Shown here: positions 42,591 through 60,008 of the stretch, in pieces | Layout: every line of letters begins with the position of its first letter | Position numbering within the stretch: position 1 is the stretch's first letter | From: Psococerastis gibbosa | Taxonomy: Eukaryota; Arthropoda; Insecta; Psocodea; Psocidae | DNA: 64,000 bases | Direction: 5' to 3' | Assembly (NCBI GenBank): GCA_963971405.1 | Contig: OZ020488.1 | Span: 1,302,001-1,366,000, forward strand | The notes under the pieces: generated by a model | Seen by the model: only the letters and a program-made list of their open reading frames with translations | The model's database searches: none | What the model was told of the DNA's origin: nothing | Position numbers and translations under genes: made by a program

Positions 42591-43059
42591 TAACTCTATA
42601 TAGAGCAATATAATTGAATAATGGGTACTTAGAAGAATCGTGTCAACCTGCAGAGTGCAGACTATAACAGGGCGATGGTCATGAGAGATAGTTTATTTTG
42701 GTTTTGTTTCGAAATTACAATAGTATCGCTATGATTGAGAGGGCTGGCAAACTGGGTCGTGTACAAACAAATTCCTTTCACTCTTCGTTGCGTCAGCCGT
42801 ACAACTTACAACTGTTTGGGCCGTAAAACCGAGAATTAGTTGGCTGGTCTGCAGCTATCAGGACCTTATTTAAATGTAACTCGTAACTTGAGCTCAAAGT
42901 GTTGCTCGTCGGCTAATCTGAGTGTTGCATCACAGGTTGCACATTCCTTTATTTTCATACTAATTAGAGTTTGACTGTCAGTTGAGTTTAAATTATAAAT
43001 CTGAGTCAACAGATTTCGTGCAAGAAAAGCCCTTTCGCATCAGAGCGGGGCCCGCCATT

Positions 43060-43945
43060 TTTTGTTTCTATAATATATGTAGATGCCACAGTGCTGGTTG
43101 CTTCATCAGAAGAACAACAGTTGTTATTAAATAAAATTAGTGCAGCAGGCAAATAGGCAGAAATGCGGGCATCGTGCAGAAGGCGCAAGTGATGACTGTC
43201 AGTAAAAGAGGGCAGAGAAAAATCGGAATATGGTTCTGGGCGGTGCGCCTGTAGTACAATGTAAACAATACCGGCACCTCGGATGCATGGTAAACTGTGA
43301 GTGGGAGGTGAGTCAGGAAATTCGCAGCCGCATTGAACAAGCTCGAAATGTCTTCATCAAAATCCAGAATTCTGTGCCAGAATCTGTGGCTGGACCTTCG
43401 ATTGAGAAATGTTATGTGTTCCCGTTATATATTGTATTGAGAGCTATGAGAACAAAATCAGGGCAATTGGAAAATTGAACACCGTCCTGTTACTATTACA
43501 AACGGAAACTGACATACTTCGGCCATATGATGAGGGACGGAAAGTTTCCATACATGATATGAGTTCATTCATTAGTAAAGCGTGAATTATTGTTTCAGTT
43601 GGACTTCTAATTTCGCAGATCAACCAATACATCGTGTATGCAAACCATCATTACTATCGGTATAAGCTGTAATAACTTAATGGAATACAGAAGGCGACAT
43701 CAAGCTCAAAGCAAAACAAAAGAATGGTTAGGTTAGAAGGTGACAGGCCAGGCCACAGAACCGATGGAGAGACGAGTGGGACTGTGACCCGCGAAATATG
43801 TCAGTTACGGCTTGGCATAAGCAGACAATGTACCAGGATGTCTGGGGAGCTCACTCTACTGAAGGAGAAGCATTTCAGAAGGAGATATGCATTTTTTGAT
43901 AACAAACTTGTAGTAAAACTGTGTTCATGCCCAAAAAATTGGTTG
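43060..43945 (+). mobile_element. LINE reverse transcriptase C-terminal fragment (RTE-like)
   Basis: A frame near 43,075 reads YVDATVLVASSEEQQLLLNKI, the region of the catalytic YADD box with the box changed to YVDA (quoted in two parts: YVDATVLVASSEE, then QQLLLNKI). Further on, YRHLGCMVNCEWEVSQEI and RSRIEQARNVFIKI match the post-RT block YLGs.i...g....EI..RI..A...F.K. Then KRKLTYFGHMMRDGKFP matches the later R.L.yfGHi.R block. Stops and frame changes separate them. It lies exactly between the two copies of the modular repeat. Clade assignment by motif is tentative. Confidence 0.7.
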
Positions 43946-44850
43946 TCTGTAAGTCGGCTTACGGACGATAGTTTAACGTGACAACGCCTAAATTAACTTA
44001 AACATAATTAACTAATTAACTTAAATTATATATGACTGGAAAGAGATAGAAATTTGGAAAAGCCCTCATGTAGTTTGATATTTTAAATAGATAACATTTT
44101 TGTTGAAAATCGTGAGCACCCCCTGACGTTTCACAACCCCAAAGCCAAACCCCGGCTTGATCACCACAAATATAGCATGGCCTGAAAGAAGAAGAATAGA
44201 CGAAGACATGGATATAATTTAAATTAAGATAGGCCTTCCACATCAGTCCAAAATATTGCTTTAAACCCGCCCATGCAATTCAAATGTCTCAGTTTACTAA
44301 TTTTGTGTTCCACTCGTGTTTAAGGGGTGAAGGAGGAAATTTGAAACTATGTATTTATACTCGTTTGAAACCTTAATTCATAATGCTTCTAAAGAGGTAT
44401 TAAAAATTTATTTCGGTTGAAAATTGCAGGCTGTGGAATTTTTTTTACTCTATGCATGTAAATTGAAAAGTACCCTTTGAACCTGTTTTCCTCCGAAACA
44501 CGGATGGCTTACACACTCACCTGAGCCTGAACGATGGGACGGATATTAAAACTGAAGATATATCTGGAAAGAGTAAGAAAGTTGGAAAAGAACTAAAGTA
44601 GTTTGAAGTTCTCAAATTGATAATAGCACCCCCATAAACGCGCCCGAAAAAGGCCTATTTTGGATGAAAATCGGCAAATTCGGGCCAAATTTGGGCGCAC
44701 ATCCTCACGTTTCTACCCCCCAAAGTCGAACCCCTTGCCCTATCACAACAAATATAGCATGGCCTGAAAGAAGAAGAATAGACAAAGACATGGGTATAAA
44801 TTAAATTGAGATATTTATATTGAGAAATCATCTGCCCAAAACCAGCGTTA
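43946..44850 (+). repeat. Modular repeat region, copy 2
   Basis: Direct copy of 41,545-42,480 beginning TCTGTAAGTCGG, with modules at about 44,030-44,255 and 44,560-44,840. The inverted GAAGTG ends of copy 1 are not present. Confidence 0.65.
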
Positions 44851-45399
44851 CTGACCCGCGTTCCCGATCCGCGTTACATTTTTCGTACATGCACCTAGTA
44901 TTCAAGCCGGCGCTCATCAATTTATTATTAGACGTTGTTACGTCAAAAAAAAACTATGAGCTTACTTAACAACTTCAAAATCATAAATAATCGAGTTTAT
45001 AAGTATAATTTTTCAAAATTTGTGTGTAAAGAAGTATAGTACTATAAAATAGATGAAATGCTTAAACCCGCCCCTTTTTTTAATGGCAGAGTACCCTACC
45101 TAGTACCTACTGCGCATCAGCATCGTCATTCCTCCTGAAAGGATTCCCATGTAGTTTCTATTGTAGTTTACAGCGAGAAAGAGAGAGAGAGAGGCCATTT
45201 TCTGTTTGGTTCACGGGACCTTATTAGTAAGGGGACTGCAGAAAATTCCCGAGAGAAGTAATTAATTTTGTTCGTCTCCAGGACTGACCAGCATTTCCTG
45301 CAGATCTCCAGCGCCGGGAAAACTGCCAATAATGCAAATAACTCGAGCACTAACCTTGAGCCTGCGTACACTCCATCACCCTTAATAATTTAATAACTT
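44851..45399. other. Stretch left of the Polinton, nothing recognised
   Basis: AT-rich. A GA microsatellite at about 45,176-45,192. No gene. Confidence 0.4.
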
Positions 45400-45405
45400 C
45401 ATTTC
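45400..45405. repeat. Polinton target-site duplication, left
   Basis: CATTTC, repeated exactly at 60,003-60,008. Six bases is the expected Polinton duplication length. Confidence 0.93.
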
Positions 45406-46319
45406 AGTAGAGTAGAAAGGGGGTTCCTGGGACACTTTTAGGCCACTCTTGCTTTTTACCTCCGGGCATGGGGGTTCCTGGGACACTTTTAGGCCACTCT
45501 TGCTTTTTACCTCCGGGCATCATTATTGTTCTAATTGTACATTGTCAGCCTCCGGCTATCACTTATTTTATACTACTTCTATGCTAACCTTGTAGCCTAT
45601 AAAACCACAACACATCATATCACAGGGGGTTTCTGGGACACTTTTAGGCCACTCTTGCTTTTTACCTCCGGGCATCATTTATGTTCTTATTGTACGTTGT
45701 CAGCCTCCGGCTATCACTTATTTTATACTACTTATATGCTAACCTTGTAGCCTATAAAACCACAACACATCATATCACAGGGGGTTTCTGGGACACTTTT
45801 AGGCCACTCTTGCTTTCTACCTCCGGGCATCATTATTGTTCTTATTCTACGTTGTCAGCCTCCGGCTACCACTTATTTTATACTATACTTATATGCTAAC
45901 CTTGTAGCCTTTCTTCTTCTTCTCTTCTTCTTCTTCTTCTTCTTCTTCACACAGTGTAAGGGGGTCGCCCCCTCCTGTTATCGGACATCATTCTCATTGT
46001 TTAAATAAATAAATAAATAAGGACTTTTTGTTCTATTACTAAGCCAACCTAGCGGAGTTAGGGCTATAAAGCCCTCTCTTACACTCAACTAGGAAGGCCC
46101 GGGACCGCCTGCTTTACATGCCCTCCGAAGCATGACCAGAAAATGTAGCAAGTGTAGGACTCGAACCAACAACCTTTCGGGTGAAAGTTGGAGTCCGTAC
46201 CACCACTCTACATGTCCATTCTCATTGTTTCTTCTTCTTCTTCACGTAGCCTACATACCGTATTTCGGGCGATTTCGCCTCCGCAATGATTATTTATTTG
46301 ATTTACATCATTTCATAGT
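45406..46319 (+). repeat. Polinton left terminal inverted repeat (914 bp)
   Basis: It matches the reverse complement of 58,667-60,002. From the tip inward it has two copies of a short GGGACACTTTTAGGCCACTC block, about 2.5 tandem units of about 155 bp (CCTCCGGC..ATCACTTA, GCCTATAAAACCACAACACA), a CTT-rich microsatellite, a SINE (46,003-46,216), and a unique inner 100 bp. It is shorter than the right repeat because it has fewer tandem units. Short open frames within the units are repeat-borne and not genes. Confidence 0.95.
46003..46216 (-). mobile_element. SINE family 1, full-length, inside the left Polinton repeat
   Basis: A 214-bp element with tRNA-like head (right side), core and (ATAA)n tail (left side). 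It is flanked by the 14-bp target duplication CATTCTCATTGTTT at 45,989-46,002 and 46,217-46,230. The same insertion with the same duplication is in the right repeat. Confidence 0.92.
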
Positions 46320-46537
46320 CTATGATTAAGATAATCTTTCACCTTCACCATTATTATTGAAGCAATAGTATGTTTCTTTCAACCATTGGTTTTTAATAAT
46401 CATTATCTAATTATAAGCTTAAAACTAGTTATGTAATTAATAAAACAAAAACAGAAATATTTAAAGAAATTATTCATATATTTACATTTCATATTATTGG
46501 TGTAGTTAACATAATACTTCAGTACATAATGAAATCT

Positions 46538-46843
46538 TCATTCTAGGATCTGTATGTTGACACTATTTTTTCCCCTATGGCTTGGAACGATGAGATACAT
46601 CTCAGCTCCTGGAGTGACTTTGCTTCCTTGAAAGGCTGACAGGTATAGTTGAGGTATAAAACACTCCACAACTTCTTTTTCCGGTCCTCGCAGTATCACT
46701 TTCACAGCTGGCCCATATTCTGTTTTGTCTATCTGCACTATTTTCAGTATTTGGTACTTAGCTCCAATCACCAGTTTTCGCATTGACATGGTGGGCCCGG
46801 CTTCTTGGTTGATGGCATTAACTTTATCACATAGAGATGCCAT
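46538..46843 (-). CDS. Small Polinton protein, possibly OB-fold single-strand DNA-binding
   Basis: 101 residues from MASLCDKVNA to NIQILE. The alternation of short hydrophobic strands (KLVIGAKYQILKIVQIDK, YGPAVKVILRG, VECFIPQLYLSAF, MYLIVPS) looks like a small beta barrel. The G.KY.I..I motif followed by YG..V.V.L resembles short OB-fold-like proteins seen in other mobile elements. A role in coating DNA during protein-primed replication is inference. It is the outermost leftward gene next to the left terminal repeat. The ATG is supported because the preceding 79 bp is shared with the polymerase gene. The start of this gene is also duplicated beside the right terminal repeat. Confidence 0.75.
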   Translation of the reverse strand: MASLCDKVNAINQEAGPTMSMRKLVIGAKYQILKIVQIDKTEYGPAVKVILRGPEKEVVECFIPQLYLSAFQGSKVTPGAEMYLIVPSHRGKNSVNIQILE

Positions 46844-46922
46844 GTTCTAAGATTACACAAATTCACTTGTAAAGTTGGCGTAGTATTACTTGAATGAAGG
46901 TTTGGTCTCAACTAAGCCCCTC
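46844..46922 (-). promoter_or_regulatory. Upstream element shared with the polymerase gene, copy 1
   Basis: Directly before the ATG, the minus strand carries blocks GAGACCAAACCTTCATTCAA, GTAATACTA and CTTTACAAGTGAATTTGTG. They recur in the same order and spacing before the polymerase ATG (58,337-58,413) and before a copy of this gene's start (58,561-58,635). Conservation outside coding sequence suggests a shared promoter and leader. Confidence 0.7.
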
Positions 46923-47246
46923 AACTGAGATGAGGGTGTATATCAGGTAAAATCATGTTGTGAGGGCCACAGCCGGAGGGGGATAGTTAAGTAATTTCTC
47001 CATTGCACCATATTTGTTAATGTAGGAATCGTTTCTTAATGTTGATCTCTCATACACATCGGTGTATTATAGGCAGCTTACAACCTTAAATCAAATGACT
47101 GATTTGTCCTTCTGTACCTAAGGCACTACATTTATGGTACCCCACCTAGTTCTAAATCGATTGTGTCTCATTATCTCTCTTTAATGACCATAATTAACCG
47201 GGTTGTATATGTAACATGTGTGAAATAGCATCAGTTGCAATTGAAA

Positions 47247-47942
47247 ATGAAGGGTGTCTTGACCACATATTATCCACTTCGTGATGGACTAAGCATTATT
47301 GTTGGTTTGCAATTCAAAGCATCAGCATTCGAAGTATACATCATAGTTGGTGATAAGGATCATGAAATTATATTCAATATGATCGAATGGCAGTCATGGT
47401 GTGCAACATTACAATCCTTTCGTTTATATCTACATAAGAAAACAATGTGTGGAAATATGATATGGACTCCTAATTTCATCAAATCAAACCTGACGATGAT
47501 GTTAACGAATGATAATGAATTGGAAATGAAGTCCTCATCATCACATATTAAACTATCTAAAATAAATATTGAGAACATACAAGCGTTGAAAGCAATTCTT
47601 CATATTGTTTGCCATGAGTTGGAAAAGAAGAAGAGGTTGGCTAATTTCCATCTAAAAAATATTATGGAAGAGATATTTATAGAGTTGGAAACAGATGATG
47701 TTTCAATGGAAGCTCTTTTACAGTTTGCCCAATCTCCAGCTCCAATAGTAGCTACTATCGAGGATGTTCGCAGTAAACTATTGTGGAAGAAGCATCAAAA
47801 TCAATCAAATCGTATGTATTTAGAAATTATAACCATCTATGAAAATGAGTTGTGCTATGAGATACTTAAGCGCTGGTTGGAGCGAGCTAAAGTCATTATC
47901 AATCAGACTGTTGAACACGATGGAACCGCTGGGGATAATTGA
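47247..47942 (+). CDS. Polinton gene of unknown function, first frame
   Basis: The frame opens with ATG at 47,247 (MKGVLTTYYPLRDG); upstream codons are open but lack an ATG. About 231 residues, mostly predicted helical with many Lys, Glu and Asn. No recognised domain. It overlaps a second rightward open frame (47,839-48,411) by about 100 bp in another frame. Whether these are one gene or two is not resolved here. It is the only rightward unit in the left half of the element, transcribed toward the integrase. Confidence 0.6.
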   Translation: MKGVLTTYYPLRDGLSIIVGLQFKASAFEVYIIVGDKDHEIIFNMIEWQSWCATLQSFRLYLHKKTMCGNMIWTPNFIKSNLTMMLTNDNELEMKSSSSHIKLSKINIENIQALKAILHIVCHELEKKKRLANFHLKNIMEEIFIELETDDVSMEALLQFAQSPAPIVATIEDVRSKLLWKKHQNQSNRMYLEIITIYENELCYEILKRWLERAKVIINQTVEHDGTAGDN

Positions 47943-48411
47943 GTTTCAAGGTTTCAAAGATAATGAAAATAATTTCATCATCAAAGAATTGGCTATGGGC
48001 CCTGCATGCAAGAACCAGTATGAACATTGGTTTTTCCGTCCACCCTTTCCATTCACCAATCTTACAAATCAAGTAAAAAGCAACAACACATGGTGCACAA
48101 ATAATCTCCATAAGCTTCGTTGGGAAGAGGGGAACGTGGACTACATTCATTTAAAGAATATTTTACTAGAGTTTGCTAACCAATATGTTAGAATTGCTAC
48201 TAAAGGAAAGGAGAAACAAGTTTGGCTTGCAGGAATACTAGAATGGGTTGTGTATGACTTGGACTCTGTGCTTCTGAGGAGTTTTGAGAAGTTACCTCAT
48301 CTAGAAGCTAAAAAATGTATTCATACAGGAAACTGTGCAATGATCAATTTGAGGAAACTACAGAAATGGTTTCAAGATGTCAATTGTTTAATTGATGATG
48401 ATGTTGATTAA
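47839..48411 (+). CDS. Polinton gene of unknown function, second frame
   Basis: 190 codons. From about residue 30 it reads IIEFQGFKDNENNFIIKELAM, here noted by key blocks IEFQGF and IIKELA, then WFFRPPFPF, WCTNNLHKLRWEEG and KGKEKQVWL. Proteins with the order QGF...KELA, FRPP.P, N.W...N.H.L.W..G and KG.EK..W are common uncharacterised open frames linked to mobile elements in invertebrates. An RNase H- or exonuclease-like fold is possible (acidic residue before QGF) but unproven. An AATAAA signal starts one base after the stop codon, and the integrase gene ends 13 bp further on, convergent. Confidence 0.6.
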   Translation: MKMSCAMRYLSAGWSELKSLSIRLLNTMEPLGIIEFQGFKDNENNFIIKELAMGPACKNQYEHWFFRPPFPFTNLTNQVKSNNTWCTNNLHKLRWEEGNVDYIHLKNILLEFANQYVRIATKGKEKQVWLAGILEWVVYDLDSVLLRSFEKLPHLEAKKCIHTGNCAMINLRKLQKWFQDVNCLIDDDVD

Positions 48412-48424
48412 AATAAAGTTATGT

Positions 48425-49339
48425 TTATAAAATTTCCGTTTTATTAATCCATGTAGGTTTCGGGAAACCAAGCCACTTCACATACAATTTATCCTTAGAC
48501 TTTTTCAACACTTTCTCCACCAAATATACATCTGTGTGCTTGGTTTTCTGCAACTCTTCCATATACCACGACCCTAATATAGGTTCACCATCCATAGCCT
48601 CAAGGAGATAGGTAGTAGGTCGAGTAGGTTGTACAAGACGCACACGAAATACTTCTGTAGACCAGTTCGGTTGGTAACCCTTCTCAAATAAGGCTTTCTG
48701 CTTGCTGATTCTGACGGGATCACCCTCTCGAAATTTCTGTTTGGTACTACCTTTCTCATCAACAGCTTTATACATAGATAATAATTTTGCTTCATGTTCT
48801 TCTCCCACATCGGCAGGACACATCTTAATGGTCCTATGCTTCGTAGTGTTGTATTGTTGCACTAAGCGAGGTAGTAAATGTAACCACTTATAACCACCCT
48901 GCAAGCTGAATTCCTTCCACATTCGATTTTTCAGAGTGCGATTCCAACGTTCAATAATTGAAGCTTTCAGTGTAGAATAAGTAGCATAATGATTAATGTT
49001 ATATTGTTTTAGAATACATTTCATTTGTATATTGAAAAATTCCAGTCCCATATCTGTCTGAAGGTGGGCAGGAGCTTGAGGAGCTCTATCGAGAATTTTT
49101 ACAAAAGCTTCAGTTACATCCTTCATAGATTTAGTTTTAACTGCTTCTGCATAGCCGAACTTTGTGAATGCATTTATCACTGTTAGAATATATTTATATC
49201 CTTTATTAATCTTTGAATATGGAATCATTTCCACCAGATCTGCTTGCCATAAATCATGCATTCCTTTAACAGTCACATGGCGTCGGGGATAATTCCGTCG
49301 AGCAGGTCGATGAATTTCATCAACCAAAGCTTGTTTCAT
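48425..49339 (-). CDS. INT: Polinton integrase with C-terminal chromodomain
   Basis: 304 residues of a retroviral-type integrase (rve fold). Catalytic acids sit at about D34 (WQADL), D96 (LQTDMGLEF) and E130 (IIERWNRTLK), giving the DDE triad. After the core comes an SH3-like stretch (GDPVRISKQK), then a chromodomain near residues 270-300 (VYLVEKVLKK, YVKWLGFP), a known Polinton feature thought to guide insertion through histone marks. It is expected to cut and join the element ends, yielding the 6-bp duplication seen here. Its start overlaps the stop of the upstream gene by four bases, suggesting one transcription unit with the next two leftward genes. Confidence 0.95.
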   Translation of the reverse strand: MKQALVDEIHRPARRNYPRRHVTVKGMHDLWQADLVEMIPYSKINKGYKYILTVINAFTKFGYAEAVKTKSMKDVTEAFVKILDRAPQAPAHLQTDMGLEFFNIQMKCILKQYNINHYATYSTLKASIIERWNRTLKNRMWKEFSLQGGYKWLHLLPRLVQQYNTTKHRTIKMCPADVGEEHEAKLLSMYKAVDEKGSTKQKFREGDPVRISKQKALFEKGYQPNWSTEVFRVRLVQPTRPTTYLLEAMDGEPILGSWYMEELQKTKHTDVYLVEKVLKKSKDKLYVKWLGFPKPTWINKTEIL

Positions 49340-50037
49340 TGAATAATAATATTTGCTTCTCGCAATTCGTTGATAATATTAATGATTTCGTTTTGATGGC
49401 TTGTATGTCCTGCGGCATGTGATGCATTAAGTAAGCGTAATCGTTCAACTAATTCATTTGGATCATTCCAATATTGATATTCACCACCAGATTTTATTCC
49501 AAAAAGCTGTTTAACAATATTTTTATATTTATAACGTTGACTGCTCCTAAGACGACCACTAGTAGTTAAATGAGCTCCAGTTCTTTCCAATATATCTTTA
49601 TAGGCTTGTAAATCTTCCAAAGTATAGTTTTCAGGTTTGTTCAATGTTAATAATTGATACAAACCCAATGTGCCTTGCCATGTTTTATCTTCGATTGTGA
49701 TCGAATCATCATCAGCATTAAAATGTACAGGGTATGAACCCAGCATAAATACACCTTCATTACTTCGTGTTACTCCATAGTATGTATCAATGGTTTTCCT
49801 ATTATATTGATTAGGCATTAATAAGTCTAAATATTTGCTAACTCCAGGTTTATGAATTGCTCTTGCTATCGCTGTTTGTTTGTTCAGCTCAATTAATTCT
49901 TGTAGAGGTTTCAAGACAGGTTTTAACTTCCGCTCTTGCTGAGAAGCCTCATTGTGTAGATCACGTTTAAGATTAAGGTACTTTTGTTGCAGAGCTTTGC
50001 GTATGTTGATAATATTCTTGATAACTTTGGTATCCAT
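49336..50037 (-). CDS. Conserved Polinton protein of unknown function
   Basis: 233 residues. Residues 1-60 are charged and likely coiled coil (KALQQKYLNLKRDL, ASQQERKLK). The middle holds YYGV, GVFMLGSYPVHFNADDDSI and TWQGTLGLYQLLTLNKPENY, a pattern I associate with an uncharacterised domain frequent in invertebrate Polintons. The C-terminal part is basic around RYKYKNIVKQLFG. It sits between integrase and ATPase with four-base overlap to the integrase start, so its product probably acts in the same phase. A structural or assembly role is speculation. Confidence 0.75.
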   Translation of the reverse strand: MDTKVIKNIINIRKALQQKYLNLKRDLHNEASQQERKLKPVLKPLQELIELNKQTAIARAIHKPGVSKYLDLLMPNQYNRKTIDTYYGVTRSNEGVFMLGSYPVHFNADDDSITIEDKTWQGTLGLYQLLTLNKPENYTLEDLQAYKDILERTGAHLTTSGRLRSSQRYKYKNIVKQLFGIKSGGEYQYWNDPNELVERLRLLNASHAAGHTSHQNEIINIINELREANIIIQ

Positions 50038-50084
50038 ATCTACTACACCGTGTTATAGTCGAATGAATAATGATGAGTTACGTG

Positions 50085-50843
50085 TTAAGCAGAGTTATTT
50101 ATATCTTTGAAATAGTGATCGAATCCCTGCCGATATCGTCCATCATTTAATCCAAAATCTTTTGCAATAACTAGGAATGTATGTGACTCTTTCCATGCTT
50201 CCGCACAGAGTTTCATGAATGTCGCTAAATTCATATCTCCCGCAACATGGTCTCTATACACATTCTTTATATTAAGCAAATCCTGTTTGAATAATACGAT
50301 AAAATTCAAATTATCTCGCAGCAAATGTTTCGGAATGGAGGTATAGGTCTGAGTGAGATAGAAGCAATCAACCCCTTTATGACGACCCATAGAGTAGACA
50401 TTTCGAATTTCCCCTTGAGATTCACATGAAACATCATCGAATATTAGCACAGAGTTAGGTTTGATGTCAGAGAGTGGTGTAACCGAATCGCCTGACCCTG
50501 TAAAAGTCATCCCACGAATAGAATTGATATTTTTCTCAAGCTGCTGGTATTTATGTTGAAACAATGTCTTGCAGAATAAGTACACATTTTCAAATCGTAG
50601 ACCAAACGGATGATATATCATGCTGCATAGTAGGCTTGTTTTACCACAACCTGATGGACCGCAGATTGTACCACGAATCGATGCAGGAAGTAAAGGCCCA
50701 TTCTTTCTATTACTCCGTACATTTTCATCTTCTTGACTTAGAATCACACTGAACTTATGTCTTTGTGGTACAAGCTTCATTATATGAGTGATTAAAAAAG
50801 CTATAAATACCACTGTATATACAAACATTTTACTCATTCGCAT
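50085..50843 (-). CDS. ATP: Packaging ATPase (FtsK/HerA, A32-like)
   Basis: 252 residues. The Walker A motif GPSGCGKTS lies at about 62-70 and Walker B VLIFDD at about 132-137, followed by a polar stretch and a conserved region with SMGRHKGVDCFYLTQTYTSIPKHLLRDN, summarised as GRHKG, LTQTY and LRDN. This is the family arrangement for ATPases that drive DNA into capsids. The first 21 residues are hydrophobic (FVYTVVFIAFLI), unusual for this soluble enzyme. A start at Met22 (50,780) would leave a normal-looking protein and put a TATA-like box of the opposite gene in free intergenic space. Both starts are possible. Confidence 0.93.
   Translation of the reverse strand: MRMSKMFVYTVVFIAFLITHIMKLVPQRHKFSVILSQEDENVRSNRKNGPLLPASIRGTICGPSGCGKTSLLCSMIYHPFGLRFENVYLFCKTLFQHKYQQLEKNINSIRGMTFTGSGDSVTPLSDIKPNSVLIFDDVSCESQGEIRNVYSMGRHKGVDCFYLTQTYTSIPKHLLRDNLNFIVLFKQDLLNIKNVYRDHVAGDMNLATFMKLCAEAWKESHTFLVIAKDFGLNDGRYRQGFDHYFKDINNSA
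50802..50809 (+). promoter_or_regulatory. TATA-like box for the capsid block
   Basis: TATAAATA lies 54 bp before the ATG of the PLA2-domain gene, in the right orientation or near to it for the rightward morphogenesis genes. It overlaps the first codons of the ATPase if the upstream ATG is used. Confidence 0.4.
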
Positions 50844-50855
50844 TTGAGAATACCT

Positions 50856-51575
50856 ATGTTGAACAACATAATTAATAAGTTACCAATTGAAGCACATATC
50901 CCCGGCTATCAATTTTGCGGACCAGGCACTAAGTTAGAAAAACGATTACTTCGTGGAGATCGAGGGAGAAACAAACTTGATCAAGCTTGTCGTGAACATG
51001 ATATAGCCTATTCACAATCATCAGATATAACTAGTCGACACGTGGCTGATAAAAATTTGGCAGATCAAGCGTGGCAACGTGTAAAAGCAAAAGATTCGTC
51101 TGTAGGGGAAAAAATCGTTGCTTTAGGTGTAGCAGCTGCAATGAAAGTTAAACGAAAGCTGGGATTTGGGTTGAAGCGGAAAGTGTCTTTCAGATCACTA
51201 TTGACTTCAGCTAAGAAAGCGATAAAGCTTACAAAACCACCCACTGTGGCGGATGCAATCAAGATCGCATATAAATCTGTGAAAAATTTAAAGGGAGATA
51301 AAAGGAAACCTCCTCGAATCATACCTATTGCCAAGACAGGTGGTATATTACCACTTATCCCGATATTTGCGGGGCTTTCTGCCCTAGGTGCTCTCTCTGG
51401 TGGTGCTGCAGGAATTGCATCGGCTGCTAATAAAGCCCATAGTGCACAGAAAAAGTATGAAGAAATGAAACGTCATAATCAAACTATGGAATCTATAGCC
51501 ATTGGAAAAGGCTTATATTTAGCACCATACAAGAATGGGAGTGGACTCTACTTACATCCTTATTCAAAAAACTAA
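50856..51575 (+). CDS. Minor virion protein with parvovirus-type PLA2 domain
   Basis: The ATG at 50,856 gives 239 residues; upstream codons are open but lack ATG. Residues 16-60 form a phospholipase A2 module: calcium-loop-like YQFCGPGT (18-25) and the catalytic pair in CREHDIAY (H48, D49), followed by a second Asp in KNLAD. This matches the PLA2 of parvovirus VP1, used to breach endosomal membranes. Residues 95-160 are very basic. Residues 162-190 are a Gly/Ala-rich hydrophobic segment. The C terminus repeats GLYLxPY twice (GLYLAPY, GLYLHPY), like basic core or minor proteins of adenovirus-type virions. It opens the rightward capsid block, 12 bp from the divergent ATPase ATG. Confidence 0.88.
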   Translation: MLNNIINKLPIEAHIPGYQFCGPGTKLEKRLLRGDRGRNKLDQACREHDIAYSQSSDITSRHVADKNLADQAWQRVKAKDSSVGEKIVALGVAAAMKVKRKLGFGLKRKVSFRSLLTSAKKAIKLTKPPTVADAIKIAYKSVKNLKGDKRKPPRIIPIAKTGGILPLIPIFAGLSALGALSGGAAGIASAANKAHSAQKKYEEMKRHNQTMESIAIGKGLYLAPYKNGSGLYLHPYSKN

Positions 51576-51580
51576 GTTGC

Positions 51581-51961: not shown

Positions 51962-51989
51962 GCTATGCATATGTTTGATTTATTATATT

Positions 51990-52685: not shown

Positions 52686-52855
52686 GAGTATATATTTCAC
52701 AGCGGTATACACCATACAACATTCCAACTCGAGCTTCCACACAAGTACGCTGTGTTAAGCTCACTAATGAGAACAGACGATATTTACAATCAATAGGTTT
52801 TAAAATCCACGATGACATCAATGCTAAACGTGAAGGAGTCCATTCTCGTGGATGA
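52682..52855 (+). CDS. Tiny basic Polinton protein between penton and major capsid genes
   Basis: 57 codons starting MRVYISQRYTPY and ending VHSRG. Its ATG overlaps the penton stop in an ATGA junction, and its 3' end overlaps the major capsid start by about 44 bp in another frame. The block RVYISQRYTPYNIPTRAS followed by LTNENRRYLQSIGFKI (quoted as LTNENRRYL, QSIGFKI) resembles short proteins next to the capsid gene in other Polintons, ending L...N...L.SLG. A virion or DNA-binding role is inference. Tight overlap on both sides argues it is translated. Confidence 0.55.
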   Translation: MRVYISQRYTPYNIPTRASTQVRCVKLTNENRRYLQSIGFKIHDDINAKREGVHSRG

Positions 52856-54026
52856 AAGTTTAACACGTTATGAATACCATAAGATTGCACCCTATTCATC
52901 AAGCAGTCTAAATAATAATGATGAAATTCGCATACCAATCCATCAACAAGATATACTTACTCTACCATGTGAAAGCCGACTGTATATTGAAGGTGTGTTA
53001 GAAAAAGGTGTGAAAACAATTGCTTATGAGGATGATGATGGGCTTAGTGCTAATGCTATGGCACACTTATTCTCTGAAATACGCTATGAACTCAATGGAA
53101 TAACTATTGATCATGTGCGAAATCCTGGTATTACCACTCAGCTTAAAGGGTTAGTATCATTCACCGCTCAAGATGCACAACGTCTTACAAACAACTCATT
53201 TTATACAGATACAAATAAAACTGAGAGGAACTTTAATTTCTGTTTGCCATTGAAAATGTTGTTTGGATTTTGCGAGGATTTCCGACGAGTTCTACTCAAC
53301 GTTAAACAAGAGCTTGTCTTAGTACGATCACGCAGCAATACGAATGCCATGCGGGATATTTCAAACACTAAAGACTTGACATTGAAACTGACTACTGTGA
53401 TGTGGGAAATACCTTTCGTAAGTGTGAGTGATAGTCAGCGCCTTGAATTGTTGAGTGTACTAAGGGAAAATATTCGGTTGCCGATTGGCTTCCGAACATG
53501 GCAACTGTATGAATATCCCAACATTCCCTCATCAACATCATCAATTAATTGGCCTGTGCGAATGATTTCTTCAAGTGAAAAACCACGGTTTGCTATTATT
53601 GGCTTCCAAGCAGCACGCACAGATGATGTTAAGGAAGATGCTAGTGTTTTTGATCAATGCGCTATACGACAAATACAACTATTCCTCGGCTCAGAATGCT
53701 ATCCATACCATCCGCTACAGGCGAACTTCAGCAAAAATACTGTTGCTGTATTATATGAAAATTTTCTCAATTTCCGGAAACACTACTACATGCAGGATGA
53801 AGCAACTCCAAACGTTTCCCGTAGTGAATTTCTAAAATCATACCCCATTTGGGTTATCGATTGCTCACGACAGAATGAGCTCATGAAAACTAGTGGTGTT
53901 GATATACGTTTGGAAATTCATTGTCAAACTAATTTCCCTGATAAAATGAGTGCCTACTGTCTACTCATTAGTGACTGCTTATATGAATATGTACCTTTAA
54001 CAGGTATTGTACATCAACTACAGTAG
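52812..54026 (+). CDS. Major capsid protein (double jelly roll)
   Basis: 404 residues beginning MTSMLNVKES. Strand-rich throughout, with blocks RIPIHQQDILTLPCESRLYIEG near residue 40-60, YELNGITIDHVRNPG near 95 and LKMLFGFCEDFRRVL near 145 (each quoted in part), then WEIPFVSVSDSQRL and SYPIWVIDCSRQ. This pattern is that of Polinton/adintovirus hexon-like proteins with two jelly-roll folds; the length is on the short side of the range. By family knowledge it forms the trimeric capsomers. Last gene of the rightward block, convergent with the polymerase across 281 bp. Confidence 0.88.
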   Translation: MTSMLNVKESILVDESLTRYEYHKIAPYSSSSLNNNDEIRIPIHQQDILTLPCESRLYIEGVLEKGVKTIAYEDDDGLSANAMAHLFSEIRYELNGITIDHVRNPGITTQLKGLVSFTAQDAQRLTNNSFYTDTNKTERNFNFCLPLKMLFGFCEDFRRVLLNVKQELVLVRSRSNTNAMRDISNTKDLTLKLTTVMWEIPFVSVSDSQRLELLSVLRENIRLPIGFRTWQLYEYPNIPSSTSSINWPVRMISSSEKPRFAIIGFQAARTDDVKEDASVFDQCAIRQIQLFLGSECYPYHPLQANFSKNTVAVLYENFLNFRKHYYMQDEATPNVSRSEFLKSYPIWVIDCSRQNELMKTSGVDIRLEIHCQTNFPDKMSAYCLLISDCLYEYVPLTGIVHQLQ

Positions 54027-54088
54027 AACCCTCGATATCCGGTAAATGAATGTAAACCATTTAATGATATAACAATTTTATAATACAT

Positions 54089-54305
54089 GTATTTTAATAG
54101 AAATCAATGTCGTTATAATCACTTAAGATAAACCTCCAACACAAGGTTAGTTAGGTTATTAATGTTTGCTGGTAATTAGTTCTAAGAGCCTTACAATCAT
54201 TTACAATTAGGGTGAGGTATTTTAAAAGAAATCAATGTCATTATAATCACTTAGTTAGATTATTTGTGTTTGTTCTGCTGGTAATTAGCTCCAGGGTTGC
54301 GATAC
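54089..54305 (+). repeat. Diverged tandem duplication between capsid and polymerase genes
   Basis: Two copies (about 54,089-54,213 and 54,219-54,305) share TATTTTAA.AGAAATCAATGTC, TTATAATCACTTA, TGCTGGTAATTAG and ACAATTAG.GTGA. They fill the gap where the two transcripts converge. Confidence 0.8.
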
Positions 54306-54307
54306 AA

Positions 54308-57300
54308 TTAGAGTGAAATGCGATAATGACCGTGAGCTAAACTATCAATTCCATTACGACACACATACCGTTTATCATCATAAGGGCTGAGAGTGAGTTT
54401 TTGTTGTTTAATTGTAAAAAGTTTATGATCAATACTTTGAATACGGTACATTGGTTTACACGAGTCTTTTACACTGTAGGACTTAAATAGGGTATTGTAA
54501 TAGTCTTGATGGGAAATATGATGTTTGAGGGTTGAGCGAACTATACCTTTGCCCACTTTCTTTTCTTTTCCCTCCTCAAACAAGGAATACAATTTGGGGC
54601 GTAAAGCAACACATTGTAAAATGTGAGAATGAGCATTCTCATCTTTAAACGTCCCCACTTTCTTTTTATTTTCAATATTGTATAAGAGATGGTTTGAGGG
54701 ATATACTGAGTTATCAAATAAATGGGGGTATGGCTTTAAATCAACATATAAATCATCACTCTCAACCTCATAAACCAGAGAATCTGTATCTGTTAAAATC
54801 AGTGTAGCTTTATCACCATACCTTTGTTTTACAAAGTTATAATGAAATTCATACATAACGACCTTAGATAGTTCCAGAACGGTTAGACCAACAAATATTG
54901 GCTTATTAAGTAAAATATTAGTTTTTTTTGAGCGGACTGCAATTAAGTCTTTTGAAAAAATCTGAAAATCTTTAAATGCGGGGGATGAGATAAGTTTGCT
55001 AGCTCGTTTGGTAGTGTTAACTAACTCTAATTTTGTGTGTTTTCTAACATTCTCCATTGTCTTCCCAAACATACTATTAATTTTCAATTTGTAAAAATCC
55101 TTCTCGAAATCATTACAAGCTAATTTTCGTTTTTCTGTGTTAAAATCGATAAAGGGTCGCATCCAAGCGCTTTGTTTAAAAGCTAAAATTTTATGTGTAT
55201 TTTTTAATTTTAAACCCAATTCTAAACATTGCTTCAAATTTCGATAGTGTATAACATAGTTGTGTTTATCGTTTAAGTTGGGAATAAGCTTTGAGATTGT
55301 GGATGATAAAGATATATTATTTTCAGCAAGAAATTCCTTACAATAGGGGGAAATCATGTTTGAAGTAACAACACAATGTTCGGCTGCCAGTGGGTATTCA
55401 TTATGTAAGTCGTGCAATTTTTGTGGATATTCCAAGTCCACCTGCAATATAAACCCATCATCCCCCTCGTCAGGTATGAGCATTACATCAAAGTTTTTAA
55501 TTTCTTCCATATCCATCCAACGAAACCCACTGACAGGCAAAAATTGGCGCATCGCATGTCCGTACAAGTTAGTACAATCCCAATATACTATAAATTTGGA
55601 TGGTTTATTTGATTCAAATTTTTTTAAGTATTTATTGTTACTTTCAGCAAATCTTTTTGAAATCATACTTATACCCCCGCGAATCCCAGCCTCACAAAAC
55701 AAATGCATATTAGGATCAGTCAACAGCTCAATTTCTACTCTTGTCATTTTTAAGCAGCTTTGAAGAGCTAGTCCTGGTGCTGTGTACATGTGACAAATTT
55801 CAAGGTTATCGTTTTCGAAACATAAGGCTCTGAAGGCTTCAAAAACATCACAAAGAAGAAGGGTGTCTGTTAATACATATAAGTCTTGGTATTCCCCTAA
55901 ATTCTTTATGTTAAAAACATTCCACACTTTTTGAGCGTGTTCATATTGTTCTTGTGAAATCTCCTCTTGAGTTAATCGACTAAAAAATGCTTCGATTGGA
56001 GGCAAATGCTCATCATTAAATTTTGATTCATGCGTCATATATTCATAGGGGAAGACACCTTTCCTCAACATTAAGTCTAACTTTTCACCCACAAAACATG
56101 TTTTCATAATTTGAAATTTATCTTTACCCACATCAACAAGATTTTTTACTAAAGAGTCTAATGAGGTGGCCATAAATTGGTATGTATCTAAAAAGCGTAA
56201 CTCCCCAATACTGAAGGCTATATATTCCTCCATAGTTTTAGCTATACATGTAATTTTTATATTTTTTAGCTTCCCAACCCCTTGCATGATAAGATGTCCA
56301 TCATAATGTCTCAAGTTATGCATAAAAACGGGGATATGTTTTGGAGTTCGAAAATTGCTCATATTACAGACATTATGTAATGCTTGTCTATATTTCCCCG
56401 TTATATGGCAGTGGTCTATTACTCGATCAGCTCCTAGTGGCTTTTGACAAACATTACAAATGATAGAGTTTTTAAAATTTTCTCTATCCTCATCAGTCAT
56501 AATTACCGGTTTAATATTTTTATAAATTTCTAAAATTTCATCCTTAACATTTAATAGGGATTTCAAAAATACATCAACAGCATCGGTTCCCCTGTAAACT
56601 ACCGGTTCTTTAAACTTATTCCCATTGATATCCACAACAACGTAGGAAAACCCTGATGGTATATGCATTGATAATTTTTCAGTGTTACAACTGGTCCCTT
56701 CAATGGGACTGAGAATGCTCTCGAAATCGGCATATATTCTATATGCTACAGGGATCATATATTGTGGCTTATCGAATTTCATAATACTTTTCTCCTTAGT
56801 TGGAAATGTGGTTTTTTGCGGATCATGTGTTGAGCAGAGTGGTTTATGTTCGTGTAAGCGTTCAGCACTACTGAAGGGGTGTATACACCAACGGCAATAA
56901 AACTTTTGTTCCTTATGTTTCGTGATTGAGAAATTAAGTTTGTTGAAATTTTTAATAAGACAATAATGTGAATTTTTACCTTCAGTTATGTAAAGCAGAT
57001 CTACTAGCTTATTATAATGTTGACTTTGTGATAAATATAATGGAAACAATCTTTGTTCATAACCAAACACATTTACTCCGATATTATTCATTTTTTCAAA
57101 TTTTGGAATGACTTGTAAAGATACTGGGTATGTTATACCTTTCATATTTAACTCCTTCTCACACTTTTTATAATTATGAACTCGCTCAGCGTGTATCTTT
57201 ACTGGATGCAAGTATGCTAAAATTGACCATATAAAACATTTAAGGTCTTCATTTTTAATATTGATTACTGCTTTGGTGTTATATATTTTTTTAGGTAAAG

Positions 57301-58336
57301 GAATGTAACTACTACCACTGCATGGATTATATTCAGCAATATAGATACTAAAACTTTTTAAACATTTCAACACCCACCCGCTTCCCATTGCTTGAAATTT
57401 ATCTATTTTTATTAGAATTTGTTCAATCATTTGTTGATATTTTATTGTGGGGTTATCACTTAGGAGAAGTTGTTCGTTTTTAGCACGAAACCACGCCTTA
57501 GTATAATTTTTATCGCTGTCGGGTCCACGTTCAAATTCAATATGTAGAGCTACATGCCATTTAATAGCTTTTAAAAGTTTTATGTTTTCAGTTGTAATGG
57601 TGTCAACCTCGCCTGTCATATTATTTAGATAAACAACTGGATCATGTATGGTCATGTTTTTATAATTATATTGTTTTACAACACCATCTAGAGCTGTAGA
57701 TGTTTTACATGCAAAGTTCTCATCGGTAGATAGCTCTCCCCCGCTCATAATTGTGCAATTATTTATATGATTAGTAAAATAGTCTCTCATAAATAATTCG
57801 TTGCAATTGAAACAATTAATAATATGTATGCTTAATATGTGGGTTTTCAAATTATACTTTCGAGTAAAAGGTGCTGAACAGAATTCACAAATAAATTTAT
57901 GTTCAGGGATTTTAACAGATTCAAGATTCTTGTACTCACATGGAAAGATGGATATGCATTCTTTACATAGAACTGTTTCAGTAGTGTTGATGATTTCACC
58001 TCCGCAACTCTTGCATTTCCCTCCATTCCCAGTCGATGTTGGTTTAGGTGTGATTTCATATGGAAAGATGGATGTGCATTCTTCGCACAGAACTGTTTGA
58101 GCAGTGTTGATAATTTTCCCTCCGCAACCCTGACATTTCTCTCCATTCATAGTAGATGTTGGTATTGGGGCAATTTCGACAGGTTCAGAATTCTCGTACT
58201 CACATTTAAAGATGGATGTGCATTCTTCACATAGAACTGTTTGACCGGTGTTGATGATTTCACTCCCGCAACCATCACATATTCCACATTTATATTCACC
58301 CTCGTTCAGTTTCCTTTTCTTCATTGGGGGTGTCAT
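54308..58336 (-). CDS. POLB: Protein-primed DNA polymerase B with zinc-ribbon array
   Basis: 1,342 residues, start ATG at 58,336. Order: three near-identical C4 modules (about residues 17-40, 68-90, 108-130; key pattern C..CG..IINT..TVLC.EC), a C2H2 finger (about 150-172), a linker, then YADFES (exonuclease I, about 535), an HNH/endonuclease VII-like insert with CNVCQKPLG and DHCHITGKYR (about 627-660), HNLRHYDGH (exonuclease II, about 673), YQDLYVLTDTLLL (exonuclease III, about 816), motif A DCTNLYGHAM (about 920), motif B KINSMFGKT (about 1,085), and motif C TDTDSLVYE (about 1,182). This is the family B enzyme that copies the linear element from a terminal protein. The leader shares sequence with the small OB-fold-like gene. 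Repeated zinc modules are more than I expect for the family. Confidence 0.97.
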   Translation of the reverse strand: MTPPMKKRKLNEGEYKCGICDGCGSEIINTGQTVLCEECTSIFKCEYENSEPVEIAPIPTSTMNGEKCQGCGGKIINTAQTVLCEECTSIFPYEITPKPTSTGNGGKCKSCGGEIINTTETVLCKECISIFPCEYKNLESVKIPEHKFICEFCSAPFTRKYNLKTHILSIHIINCFNCNELFMRDYFTNHINNCTIMSGGELSTDENFACKTSTALDGVVKQYNYKNMTIHDPVVYLNNMTGEVDTITTENIKLLKAIKWHVALHIEFERGPDSDKNYTKAWFRAKNEQLLLSDNPTIKYQQMIEQILIKIDKFQAMGSGWVLKCLKSFSIYIAEYNPCSGSSYIPLPKKIYNTKAVINIKNEDLKCFIWSILAYLHPVKIHAERVHNYKKCEKELNMKGITYPVSLQVIPKFEKMNNIGVNVFGYEQRLFPLYLSQSQHYNKLVDLLYITEGKNSHYCLIKNFNKLNFSITKHKEQKFYCRWCIHPFSSAERLHEHKPLCSTHDPQKTTFPTKEKSIMKFDKPQYMIPVAYRIYADFESILSPIEGTSCNTEKLSMHIPSGFSYVVVDINGNKFKEPVVYRGTDAVDVFLKSLLNVKDEILEIYKNIKPVIMTDEDRENFKNSIICNVCQKPLGADRVIDHCHITGKYRQALHNVCNMSNFRTPKHIPVFMHNLRHYDGHLIMQGVGKLKNIKITCIAKTMEEYIAFSIGELRFLDTYQFMATSLDSLVKNLVDVGKDKFQIMKTCFVGEKLDLMLRKGVFPYEYMTHESKFNDEHLPPIEAFFSRLTQEEISQEQYEHAQKVWNVFNIKNLGEYQDLYVLTDTLLLCDVFEAFRALCFENDNLEICHMYTAPGLALQSCLKMTRVEIELLTDPNMHLFCEAGIRGGISMISKRFAESNNKYLKKFESNKPSKFIVYWDCTNLYGHAMRQFLPVSGFRWMDMEEIKNFDVMLIPDEGDDGFILQVDLEYPQKLHDLHNEYPLAAEHCVVTSNMISPYCKEFLAENNISLSSTISKLIPNLNDKHNYVIHYRNLKQCLELGLKLKNTHKILAFKQSAWMRPFIDFNTEKRKLACNDFEKDFYKLKINSMFGKTMENVRKHTKLELVNTTKRASKLISSPAFKDFQIFSKDLIAVRSKKTNILLNKPIFVGLTVLELSKVVMYEFHYNFVKQRYGDKATLILTDTDSLVYEVESDDLYVDLKPYPHLFDNSVYPSNHLLYNIENKKKVGTFKDENAHSHILQCVALRPKLYSLFEEGKEKKVGKGIVRSTLKHHISHQDYYNTLFKSYSVKDSCKPMYRIQSIDHKLFTIKQQKLTLSPYDDKRYVCRNGIDSLAHGHYRISL

Positions 58337-58413
58337 GTTGAAAGATCACACAAATTTACTTGTAAAGTGGTATTACTTGGAAGAAGGTTTGATTTCAACT
58401 ATGCTCCTCAACC
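58337..58413 (-). promoter_or_regulatory. Upstream element shared with the OB-fold-like gene, copy 2
   Basis: On the minus strand, before the polymerase ATG: AAATCAAACCTTCTTCCAA, GTAATACCA and CTTTACAAGTAAATTTGTG line up with 46,844-46,922 in the same position relative to the ATG. Confidence 0.7.
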
Positions 58414-58560: not shown

Positions 58561-58666
58561 TTCTGAGTTTAGACCAAACCCTCATTCAAATAATACTAGG
58601 CCTACTTTACAAGTGAATTTGTGAAATCTTAGAACATGGCATGTCTATGTGATAAAGTTAATACCA
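58561..58666 (+). repeat. Inverted copy of the start and upstream region of the OB-fold-like gene
   Basis: The plus strand repeats the minus strand of about 46,814-46,922: the shared upstream element, then ATG (58,636) and about ten codons (MACLCDKVN) of the small gene, joining directly to the inner edge of the right terminal repeat. On the left the same two pieces are separated by the body of the gene. The inverted repeat therefore once extended further. Confidence 0.85.
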
Positions 58667-60002
58667 ACTATGAAATGATGTAAATCAAATAAATAATCAT
58701 TGCGGAGGCGAAATCGCCCGAAATACGGTATGTAGGCTACGTGAAGAAGAAGAAGAAACAATGAGAATGGACATGTAGAGTGGTGGTACGGACTCCAACT
58801 TTCACCCGAAAGGTTGTTGGTTCGAGTCCTACACTTGCTACATTTTCTGGTCATGCTTCGGAGGGCATGTAAAGCAGGCGGTCCCGGGCCTTCCTAGTTG
58901 AGTGTAAGAGAGGGCTTTATAGCCCTAACTCCGCTAGGTTGGCTTAGTAATAGAACAAAAAGTCCTTATTTATTTATTTATTTAAACAATGAGAATGATG
59001 TCCGATAACAGGAGGGGGCGACCCCCTTACACTGTGTGAAGAAGAAGAAGAAGAAGAAGAAGAAGAAGAAGAGAAGGGAAGAAGAAGAAAGGCTACAAGG
59101 TTAGCATATAAGTATAGTATAAAATAAGTGGTAGCCGGAGGCTGACAACGTAGAATAAGAACAATAATGATGCCCGGAGGTAGAAAGCAAGAGTGGCCTA
59201 AAAGTGTCCCAGAAACCCCCTGTCATATGATGTGTTGTGGTTTTATAGGCTACAAGGTTAGCATAGAAGTAGTATAAAATAAGTGATAGCCGGAGGCTGA
59301 CAATGTACAATTAGAACAATAATGATGCCCGGAGGTAGAAAGCAAGAGTGGCCTAAAAGTGTCCCAGAAACCCCCTGTCATATGATGTGTTGTGGTTTTA
59401 TAGGCTACAAGGTTAGCATATAAGTAGTATAAAATAATTGATAGCCGGAGGCTGACAACGTACAATAAGAACATAAATGATGCCCGGAGGTAAAAAGCAA
59501 GAGTGGCCTAAAAGTGTCCCAGAAACCCCCTGTGATATGATGTGTTGTGGTTTTATAGGCTACAAGGTTAGCATAGAAGTAGTATAAAATAAGTGATAGC
59601 CGGAGGCTGACAATGTACAATTAGAACAATAATGATGCCCGGAGGTAAAAAGCAAGAGTGGCCTAAAAGTGTCCCAGGAACCCCCATGCCCGGAGGTAAA
59701 AAGCAAGAGTGGCCTAAAAGTGTCCCAGGAACCCCCTTTCTACTCTACTACAAGAGTGGCCTAAAAGTGTCCCAGAAACCCCCTGTGATATGATGTGTTG
59801 TGGTTTTATAGGCTACAAGGTTAGCATAGAAGTAGTATAAAATAAGTGATAGCCGGAGGCTGACAATGTACAATTAGAACAATAATGATGCCCGGAGGTA
59901 AAAAGCAAGAGTGGCCTAAAAGTGTCCCAGGAACCCCCATGCCCGGAGGTAAAAAGCAAGAGTGGCCTAAAAGTGTCCCAGGAACCCCCTTTCTACTCTA
60001 CT
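58667..60002 (-). repeat. Polinton right terminal inverted repeat (1,336 bp)
   Basis: Reverse complement of the left repeat with extra tandem units. It holds the SINE (58,770-58,983), a GAA-rich microsatellite (59,036-59,090), about four to five units of about 155 bp, and a duplicated terminus (59,497-59,749 and 59,750-60,002). Confidence 0.95.
58770..58983 (+). mobile_element. SINE family 1, same insertion in the right Polinton repeat
   Basis: 214 bp, apparently identical to 46,003-46,216 in reverse complement, with the same 14-bp target duplication at 58,756-58,769 and 58,984-58,997. Confidence 0.92.
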
Positions 60003-60008
60003 CATTTC
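60003..60008. repeat. Polinton target-site duplication, right
   Basis: CATTTC, exact partner of 45,400-45,405. Confidence 0.93.

What the first reader, a model, noticed from the sequence alone, without database searches (positions are those of the whole stretch)
46003..46216. One SINE insertion, with its own target duplication, present in both Polinton terminal repeats
The 214-bp SINE and its 14-bp duplication CATTCTCATTGTTT occur at the same position in both terminal repeats. A SINE can insert only once per site, so one repeat must have been copied onto the other after the insertion, or the element was rebuilt from one end during replication. This records terminal-repeat homogenisation in a Polinton and shows a SINE carried as a passenger that is doubled each time the element moves.
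Basis: partly seen in the sequence, partly recalled or inferred. Interest (0 to 1): 0.85.

Follow-up and report, generated by a model that had tools for sequence, protein, structure and literature searches.

The report
SINE copied between Polinton ends
A small jumping gene landed once in one end of a large virus-like transposon and was then copied onto the other end; relatives in the same genome show stages of this end-copying, including one element caught half-way.

Summary
The element is a Polinton (45406-60002, 6-bp target duplication CATTTC). The 242-bp block 14-mer + SINE + 14-mer (45989-46230) is the exact reverse complement of 58756-58997. Four SINE-free sites have one 14-mer; two are, by position, the two ends of one element. 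One element (C14:39,278,976-39,293,080, duplication TGCATA both sides) has the SINE in its left repeat and an empty site in its right repeat, with a ~595-bp cap grafted outside. The cap ends inside the SINE and shares a junction variant found only on this element's two ends: an unfinished left-to-right copy. A pattern search counts 116 SINE-bearing junctions; 88 of the 100 listed form inverted pairs. Of 29 pairs read, 26 have both termini with matching 6-bp duplications; 14 of 26 have identical left and right repeats (1.7 expected when ends are shuffled), and 10 of 26 carry the same subterminal region at both ends (left/left 6, right/right 4). So the SINE inserted once, was copied across and multiplied, and end-copying recurs. 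Whether by panhandle pairing, template switching or recombination between molecules is inferred.

The parts
45400..45405 (.). 6-bp target duplication CATTTC, left side of the Polinton
60003..60008 (.). 6-bp target duplication CATTTC, right side
45406..46319 (+). left terminal inverted repeat; begins AGTAGAGTAG, holds 155-bp tandem units, a CTT microsatellite and the SINE
58667..60002 (-). right terminal inverted repeat; one more 155-bp unit and an extra 252-bp terminal fragment relative to the left
45989..46002 (+). SINE target duplication copy (left arm)
46003..46216 (-). SINE, left arm (RNA sense on minus strand; B box GGTTCGAGTCC at 46157-46167)
46217..46230 (+). SINE target duplication copy (left arm)
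58756..58769 (-). SINE target duplication copy (right arm)
58770..58983 (+). SINE, right arm, identical to left copy
58984..58997 (-). SINE target duplication copy (right arm)
59751..60002 (-). extra copy of the terminal 252 bp in front of the full right repeat
   Evidence: (I5)
46320..46517 (+). segment whose counterpart is part of the right repeat in three SINE-free right arms but missing from the right-type arms of the SINE lineage (198 bp; possible scar of the transfer)
46813..46916 (+). 104-bp inner inverted-repeat remnant, partner 58563-58666, 91% identical
   Evidence: (I16)
58563..58666 (-). partner of the inner remnant, directly behind the right repeat
   Evidence: (I16)
48425..49378 (-). 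integrase (rve) open frame
50085..50879 (-). A32-like packaging ATPase open frame
52797..54026 (+). double jelly-roll major capsid protein open frame
   Evidence: E 2e-92
54308..58345 (-). family B DNA polymerase open frame (39% identical over 426 aa to a PF03175-positive stretch elsewhere in this genome)

Best explanation
A dispersed SINE inserted once, with a 14-bp target duplication, into the left terminal inverted repeat of a Polinton. The SINE-bearing left end was then copied onto the right end before reintegration, so both repeats now carry the same insertion. This doubly marked lineage spread to at least 44 places in the genome. The family rebuilds its ends from one another repeatedly: sometimes only within the terminal repeat, sometimes taking kilobases of subterminal DNA along, which gives left/left and right/right elements that still integrate with a normal 6-bp duplication. 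Shown: single insertion, the three states (none, one-sided with partial graft, both), spread, identical ends, left/left and right/right forms. Inferred: left as the first side, and that the copying happens on a free linear replication intermediate made by the family B polymerase, through panhandle pairing of the repeats or strand switching at a few shared bases.
For: Four SINE-free sites, each with a single 14-mer (one has 1 mismatch) and otherwise matching flanks. One-sided C14 element: duplication TGCATA both sides, full SINE left, empty site right with a cap ending after 144 nt of SINE; the junction variant CATTCTCTTTGTTT + SINE tail has exactly two exact places in the whole genome, both in this element. 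The 4 SINE-free arms carry C/C at two flanking positions, 66 other arms T/A, 2 arms could not be read (72 arms). 26 of 29 SINE-bearing pairs have both termini and equal 6-bp flanks. Left and right repeats identical in 14 of 26; 0 of 20,000 shuffles reach this, mean 1.7. Nine of these 14 carry variants from the reference haplotype at both ends, e.g. 7 in E18 including one inside the SINE, 4 in E06. Same subterminal type at both ends in 10 of 26, one of the 26 not typable. Joints read in E07 and E08 and partly in E01.
Against: 12 of 26 pairs do not have identical repeats, so copying is not automatic at each move. The 198-bp loss in right-type arms of the SINE lineage could be an ordinary deletion unrelated to the transfer. 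The C14 element could be a recombinant of a SINE lineage and a SINE-free element rather than a direct relic, although its private junction variant on both ends argues for copying within its own lineage. The SINE-free element on C1 has no recognisable outer left repeat in about 3.3 kb read outward, so its left duplication could not be checked. Several elements share a haplotype, so counts of elements are not counts of independent events.
Confidence: 0.86

Rival explanations
1. Nonhomologous or homologous recombination between two Polinton molecules in opposite orientation, not copying within one molecule, moved the SINE and made left/left and right/right forms (the model given for poxvirus repeat expansion).
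For: Both reciprocal classes are seen, left/left 6 and right/right 4 of 26; mixed-ended elements exist: E05 with two different termini, E21 with a 283-bp SINE duplication on one end, E09 and E02 with two repeat haplotypes; the three joints computed share 1, 0 and 3 bases.
Against: The C14 element has the same junction variant, unique in the genome, on both of its own ends, most simply a transfer within one element or between its sister copies.
Confidence: 0.35
2. Ordinary gene conversion between the two repeats after integration in the chromosome.
For: Would give identical repeats with different interiors, as in 7 of the 14 identical pairs: E03, E06, E12, E15, E17, E18, E25.
Against: Left/left and right/right elements have normal 6-bp duplications, so they were made before integration; homogenised haplotypes recur at more than one locus (E15 and E32; E25 and E26).
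Confidence: 0.12
3. Two independent SINE insertions at the same site in both repeats.
For: The target is identical in both repeats.
Against: Both copies are letter-identical including the tail and both 14-mers, while the 23 matches in 20 SINE loci read outside the Polinton are 89.9-95.2% identical to it; 20 of 20 matched copies there have G at a base where 64 of 76 matched Polinton copies have A.
Confidence: 0.01
4. The SINE is ancestral to the repeats and was lost precisely from the SINE-free ends.
For: None direct.
Against: SINEs are not known to excise precisely (recalled); each of four sites would need loss of SINE plus one 14-mer, together with the C/C alleles.
Confidence: 0.01
5. Assembly artefact in a repetitive family.
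For: E30 (C15:22,816,639-22,821,508) has inverted copies of the same host flank on both sides, 100 of 100 bp, so at least one locus is a palindrome, real or artificial.
Against: In the other 26 pairs the 100-bp flanks show no inverted similarity, apart from one 31-bp, 81% match in E04, and the 6-bp duplications agree.
Confidence: 0.04

Closest known systems
Endogenous mavirus-like elements with regenerated TIRs (PMC8547959, passages seen)
   Same: Integrated virophage elements; [quoted passage not shown] retrotransposons nested inside elements.
   Different: Ngaro retrotransposons there, not a SINE inside the repeat; no tracer, no one-sided intermediate, no count of left/left and right/right forms in the passages I saw.
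Poxvirus ITR expansion by copying one end onto the other (PMC10230479, passages seen)
   Same: Left-to-right and right-to-left duplication with deletion at the receiving end; rearrangements in 5 of 339 genomes there.
   Different: A different virus group and replication mode (the latter recalled); here the record is of integrated copies in a genome.
Retrotransposition near a poxvirus ITR with a pseudo-empty site at the other ITR (cowpox vGAAP; taterapox SINE; PMC9578705, passages seen)
   Same: LINE-mediated insertion with a target duplication at the end of a DNA virus; a single target copy at the analogous place near the other end.
   Different: There the insertion is near one end in the passages seen; here it is inside both repeats and multiplied in a genome.
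Vertebrate Mavericks (PMC8097293, passages seen)
   Same: 6-bp duplications, TIRs, (AGT)2 end motif read by the authors as allowing jumping-back in protein-primed replication; one copy here has an extra AGT (AGTAGTAGATATAAAA, C2:38981764).
   Different: End copying is not discussed in the passages I saw.
Adenovirus panhandle repair of unequal or lost ends (recalled, no paper read)
   Same: Protein-primed linear DNA with ITRs; one end can be rebuilt from the other.
   Different: Experimental virus system; in Polintons inferred here from genomic copies only.

Membership tests
Polinton/Maverick | 6-bp target site duplication | tested here: met
   CATTTC both sides of the window element; equal in 26 of 29 SINE-bearing pairs read, a terminus not found in 2, inverted host flank in 1
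Polinton/Maverick | Terminal inverted repeats with short terminal repeats (AG/AGT) | tested here: met
Polinton/Maverick | Family B DNA polymerase | tested here: met
   window frame itself not hit by Pfam DNA_pol_B_2 (not among the 6 genome matches, where 91 of 205 candidates were scored), but 39% identical over 426 aa (8e-104) to one of those six stretches
Polinton/Maverick | Protein priming of replication | not testable with these tools
   needs biochemistry; termini are compatible
Polinton/Maverick | Retroviral-type integrase | tested here: met
   rve, 5.3e-10
Polinton/Maverick | A32-like ATPase | tested here: met
   Pox_A32, 8.5e-9
Polinton/Maverick | Double jelly-roll capsid protein | tested here: met
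   2e-92
Polinton/Maverick | Adenovirus-type protease | tested here: inconclusive
   Peptidase_C5 at E 0.06 only, frame 51479-51961
tRNA-derived SINE | Dispersed short repeat with target duplication | tested here: met
   3,601 first-look candidates, 40 scored; 14-bp duplication proven by empty sites; an 18-bp exact duplication at one copy in L047; of the other 22 matches in the 20 loci my exact-word test gave only two 7-base words (L043 and a second copy in L047) and nothing for 20
tRNA-derived SINE | tRNA-like head with A and B boxes | tested here: inconclusive
   exact B box; A box not tested by a tool; ARAGORN and Rfam give no tRNA here
tRNA-derived SINE | Pol III transcription, LINE-driven mobilisation | not testable with these tools
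   needs RNA data and a partner LINE

The most novel reading that the evidence does not exclude
Polinton ends are routinely rebuilt from one another while the element is a free linear molecule, so that a sizeable share of integrations are defective-interfering-like left/left or right/right genomes; the genome keeps a readable archive of this, and a SINE in the repeat serves as a natural tracer that shows a transfer stopped half-way.
Probability: 0.6. Interest if true: 0.75.

Novelty: new variant of a known kind. Interest (0 to 1): 0.66.

Why it matters
As far as I recall, how Polintons replicate and keep two matching ends is inferred mainly by analogy with adenovirus and protein-primed phages. 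A recent family with at least 44 SINE-marked pairs in one genome, a foreign marker in the repeat, mixed-ended copies and end-duplicated copies makes the rate, direction and tract length of end copying measurable from sequence alone. It also shows how a retroposon gets two copies per move by sitting in a transposon's terminal repeat.

Tried and rejected
Rejected: independent double insertion, precise loss, SINE derived from the Polinton end (see rivals). Rfam and ARAGORN gave no tRNA in the SINE. Pfam, NCBIfam, PHROGs and PDB did not name the polymerase frame as a polymerase; Pfam and PHROGs gave a weak endonuclease VII stretch in it; a comparison within the genome did. A first alignment of unoriented loci was useless for three of the four SINE-free loci and was redone after orientation. 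One regex for a SINE base matched nothing and was corrected. E30 was dropped from the 26 because its flanks are inverted copies; E28 and E31 because one or both termini were not found in the fetched stretch. E13's right arm has a cut SINE and could not be typed. The variant counts of E13, E16 and E21 (133, 48, 47) are inflated by alignment across a cut or duplicated SINE; only equality of the two ends is used. The single variant shared by the ends of E29 also occurs in other elements, so E29 is weak evidence. Flank comparison tested inverted similarity over 100 bp only. The organism was not identified.

Full report
WHAT IS THERE. The window lies at C13:1302001-1366000 of an unnamed 409-Mb genome. 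A Polinton occupies 45406-60002. It begins AGTAGAGTAG on both sides, is flanked by CATTTC on both sides, and has frames for integrase, A32-like ATPase, a phospholipase-like protein, double jelly-roll capsid protein and a family B polymerase. The protease assignment is weak (Peptidase_C5, E 0.06). The arms hold 155-bp tandem units, a CTT microsatellite and the SINE. The 242-bp block with the SINE and its two 14-mers is identical in the two arms; the rest of the arms differ (96.6% over the longest 864-bp piece), and the right arm has one unit more and an extra 252-bp terminal piece.

SINGLE INSERTION. A search for the joined flanks found four SINE-free arms among 40 scored candidates of 126; a pattern search of the whole genome with up to 3 mismatches found the same four and no more. 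Each has one 14-mer, in one case with a single mismatch, between flanks that continue without the 214 bp. So the 14-mer pair is a target duplication. The SINE family is dispersed: another copy in the window (21904-22097) brought 3,601 first-look candidates, 40 of them scored. In 20 loci read from that search (one of them the window copy itself) there are 23 matches to the Polinton SINE, 89.9-95.2% identical. One, in L047, shows an 18-bp exact duplication; my simple exact-word test gave two 7-base words and nothing for the other 20. The SINE has an exact B box, but no tRNA is called by ARAGORN or Rfam, so tRNA descent is likely but not proven.

THREE STATES. None/none: C1:50,927,845 and C1:50,940,585 are, by position, orientation and interior, the two arms of one element, both without the SINE; its outer left repeat is missing or interrupted in about 3.3 kb read, so its left duplication is unchecked. 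The other SINE-free arms are C13:39,360,582, whose partner I did not find, and C14:39,292,155. One-sided: the C14 element runs from 39,278,976 to 39,293,080 with TGCATA at both sides. Its left repeat has the full SINE. Its right repeat has the empty site, the older alleles and the longer repeat of the SINE-free class; outside that sits a cap of about 595 bp which starts at the terminus, runs through units, microsatellite, 14-mer and 144 nt of SINE and then switches to a 155-bp unit. The cap and the left repeat share the 14-mer variant CATTCTCTTTGTTT. A genome-wide search for this variant followed by the SINE tail finds exactly two exact places, these two. The SINE of this element also keeps the family base G where 64 of 76 matched Polinton copies have A; 12 of 76 have G, among them both copies of this element, and 20 of 20 matched copies from the SINE loci have G. 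I read this as an early branch of the SINE lineage in which a left-to-right copy was only partly made. Both: 116 SINE-bearing junctions (62 forward, 54 reverse; 100 listed, all exact). Of the 100, 88 form 44 adjacent inverted pairs, 2,983-13,688 bp apart, 19 of them at 12,980-12,990; 12 sites were left over by this simple pairing, one of which (C1:43,544,951) is the true left end of E02.

DIRECTION AND SCAR. In the three right arms of SINE-free type the repeat reaches the equivalent of 46517 before right-specific DNA begins; in right-type arms of the SINE lineage it stops at 46319, 198 bp earlier. Two flanking positions read C/C in exactly the 4 SINE-free arms, T/A in 66 others, and could not be read in 2 of 72. 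Together with the C14 element this favours left-to-right transfer, though a plain deletion could also explain the 198 bp.

RECURRENCE. I read 29 SINE-bearing pairs (19). In 26 both termini were found and the 6-bp flanks agree; in E28 and E31 a terminus was not found in the stretch fetched, and E30 has inverted host flanks. In 14 of 26 the two repeats are identical from the terminus to 90 bp beyond the SINE's inner 14-mer (the one boundary position left out); shuffling right ends among elements gives 1.7 on average and never 14 in 20,000 trials. Seven of the 14 have the ordinary left/right interior (E03, E06, E12, E15, E17, E18, E25) and seven the same interior twice (E01, E07, E08, E16, E26, E29, E32). 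Five of the 14 are the reference haplotype on both ends; nine carry variants on both ends: E03 6, E06 4, E15 6, E16 (283-bp duplication), E18 7, E25 2, E26 2, E29 1, E32 6. Some share a haplotype (E15 and E32; E25 and E26), so nine elements are not nine independent events. Against full homogenisation: 12 of 26 differ between ends. E05 has two different termini; E21 has the 283-bp SINE duplication on the left only, while E16, and E31 whose termini I did not read, have it on both; E09 and E02 have one haplotype per end. Terminus type agrees in 25 of 26 (4 old type, 21 new type, 1 mixed).

END-DUPLICATED ELEMENTS. In 10 of 26 pairs both ends have the same subterminal DNA: left/left E01, E02, E07, E08, E10, E26; right/right E04, E16, E29, E32; E13 could not be typed. 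E07: the right end from 54241 is replaced by an inverted copy of 46758-45406. E08: 45406-49011 is joined to inverted DNA from 54625, with inverted left-end DNA at the far side (middle not read). E01: 51965 joined to 47470-48699, then, after about 42 bp not mapped, inverted left end. Shared bases at the three joints computed (E07, E08, E01) were 1, 0 and 3. The joints of E02, E10, E26, E29 and E32 were not resolved. E16 has at least 2.7 kb identical at both ends. The 100-bp flanks of the 26 show no inverted similarity (E04: one 31-bp match at 81%), so these forms existed before integration.

MECHANISM. Shown: the SINE moved between ends of an element lineage; ends are copied repeatedly, with tracts from hundreds of bases to kilobases. 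Inferred: copying on a free linear molecule. Two routes fit: pairing of the repeats in a displaced strand (panhandle) for repeat-limited identity, and strand switching or nonhomologous recombination for left/left and right/right forms. The (AGT)n termini fit protein-primed jumping-back as described for Mavericks (PMC8097293, passages); one copy has an extra AGT.

LITERATURE. Searches. The search for polinton + homogenization + terminal inverted repeats returned 0 papers; no title or abstract start listed by the others pointed to a SINE in a Polinton repeat, but I saw passages of only four papers and the library lacks most subscription journals. PMC8547959 (passages) states that truncated endogenous virophages have TIRs that must have regenerated; PMC10230479 (passages) describes ITR expansion with end replacement in mpox virus; PMC9578705 (passages) describes retrotransposition near a cowpox ITR with a pseudo-empty site near the other and cites the taterapox SINE. 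So the kind of event is known in neighbours; the tracer, the half-way element and the count of rebuilt ends in a Polinton family are what this case adds.

Noticed in passing
59751-60002: The right end of the window element has an extra 252-bp copy of the terminus in front of the complete repeat, outside of which the true 6-bp duplication lies: perhaps a second kind of end rebuilding.
   Followed up: partly
46813-46916 and 58563-58666: A 104-bp inverted repeat, 91% identical, just inside the repeats; on the left it covers the start of a small minus-strand open frame (read by eye), on the right it is a remnant. Looks like an older, longer repeat.
   Followed up: partly
C13:1100333-1100857; C12:12808104-12808628 and 12822826-12823350: 283-bp tandem duplication including the SINE, apparently between short CTTCTTC repeats; on one end in one element, on both in another.
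   Followed up: partly
C2:38981764 (L074): Terminus AGTAGTAGATATAAAA with one AGT more than its relatives, as expected from slipping at a protein-primed start.
   Followed up: no
C15:22816639-22821508 (L105, L106): SINE-bearing pair whose host flanks are inverted copies (100 of 100 bp): a genomic palindrome or an assembly error.
   Followed up: partly
41752-44868: Direct repeats about 2.35 kb apart next to the Polinton (D2, D5, D7).
   Followed up: no
9465-9671 and 21128-21345: Another inverted-repeat pair about 11.5 kb apart (I14, I15), possibly a second element.
   Followed up: no
9012-9167 and 61662-61742: A second repeat family next to a tRNA-Thr gene call at 9095-9167.
   Followed up: no
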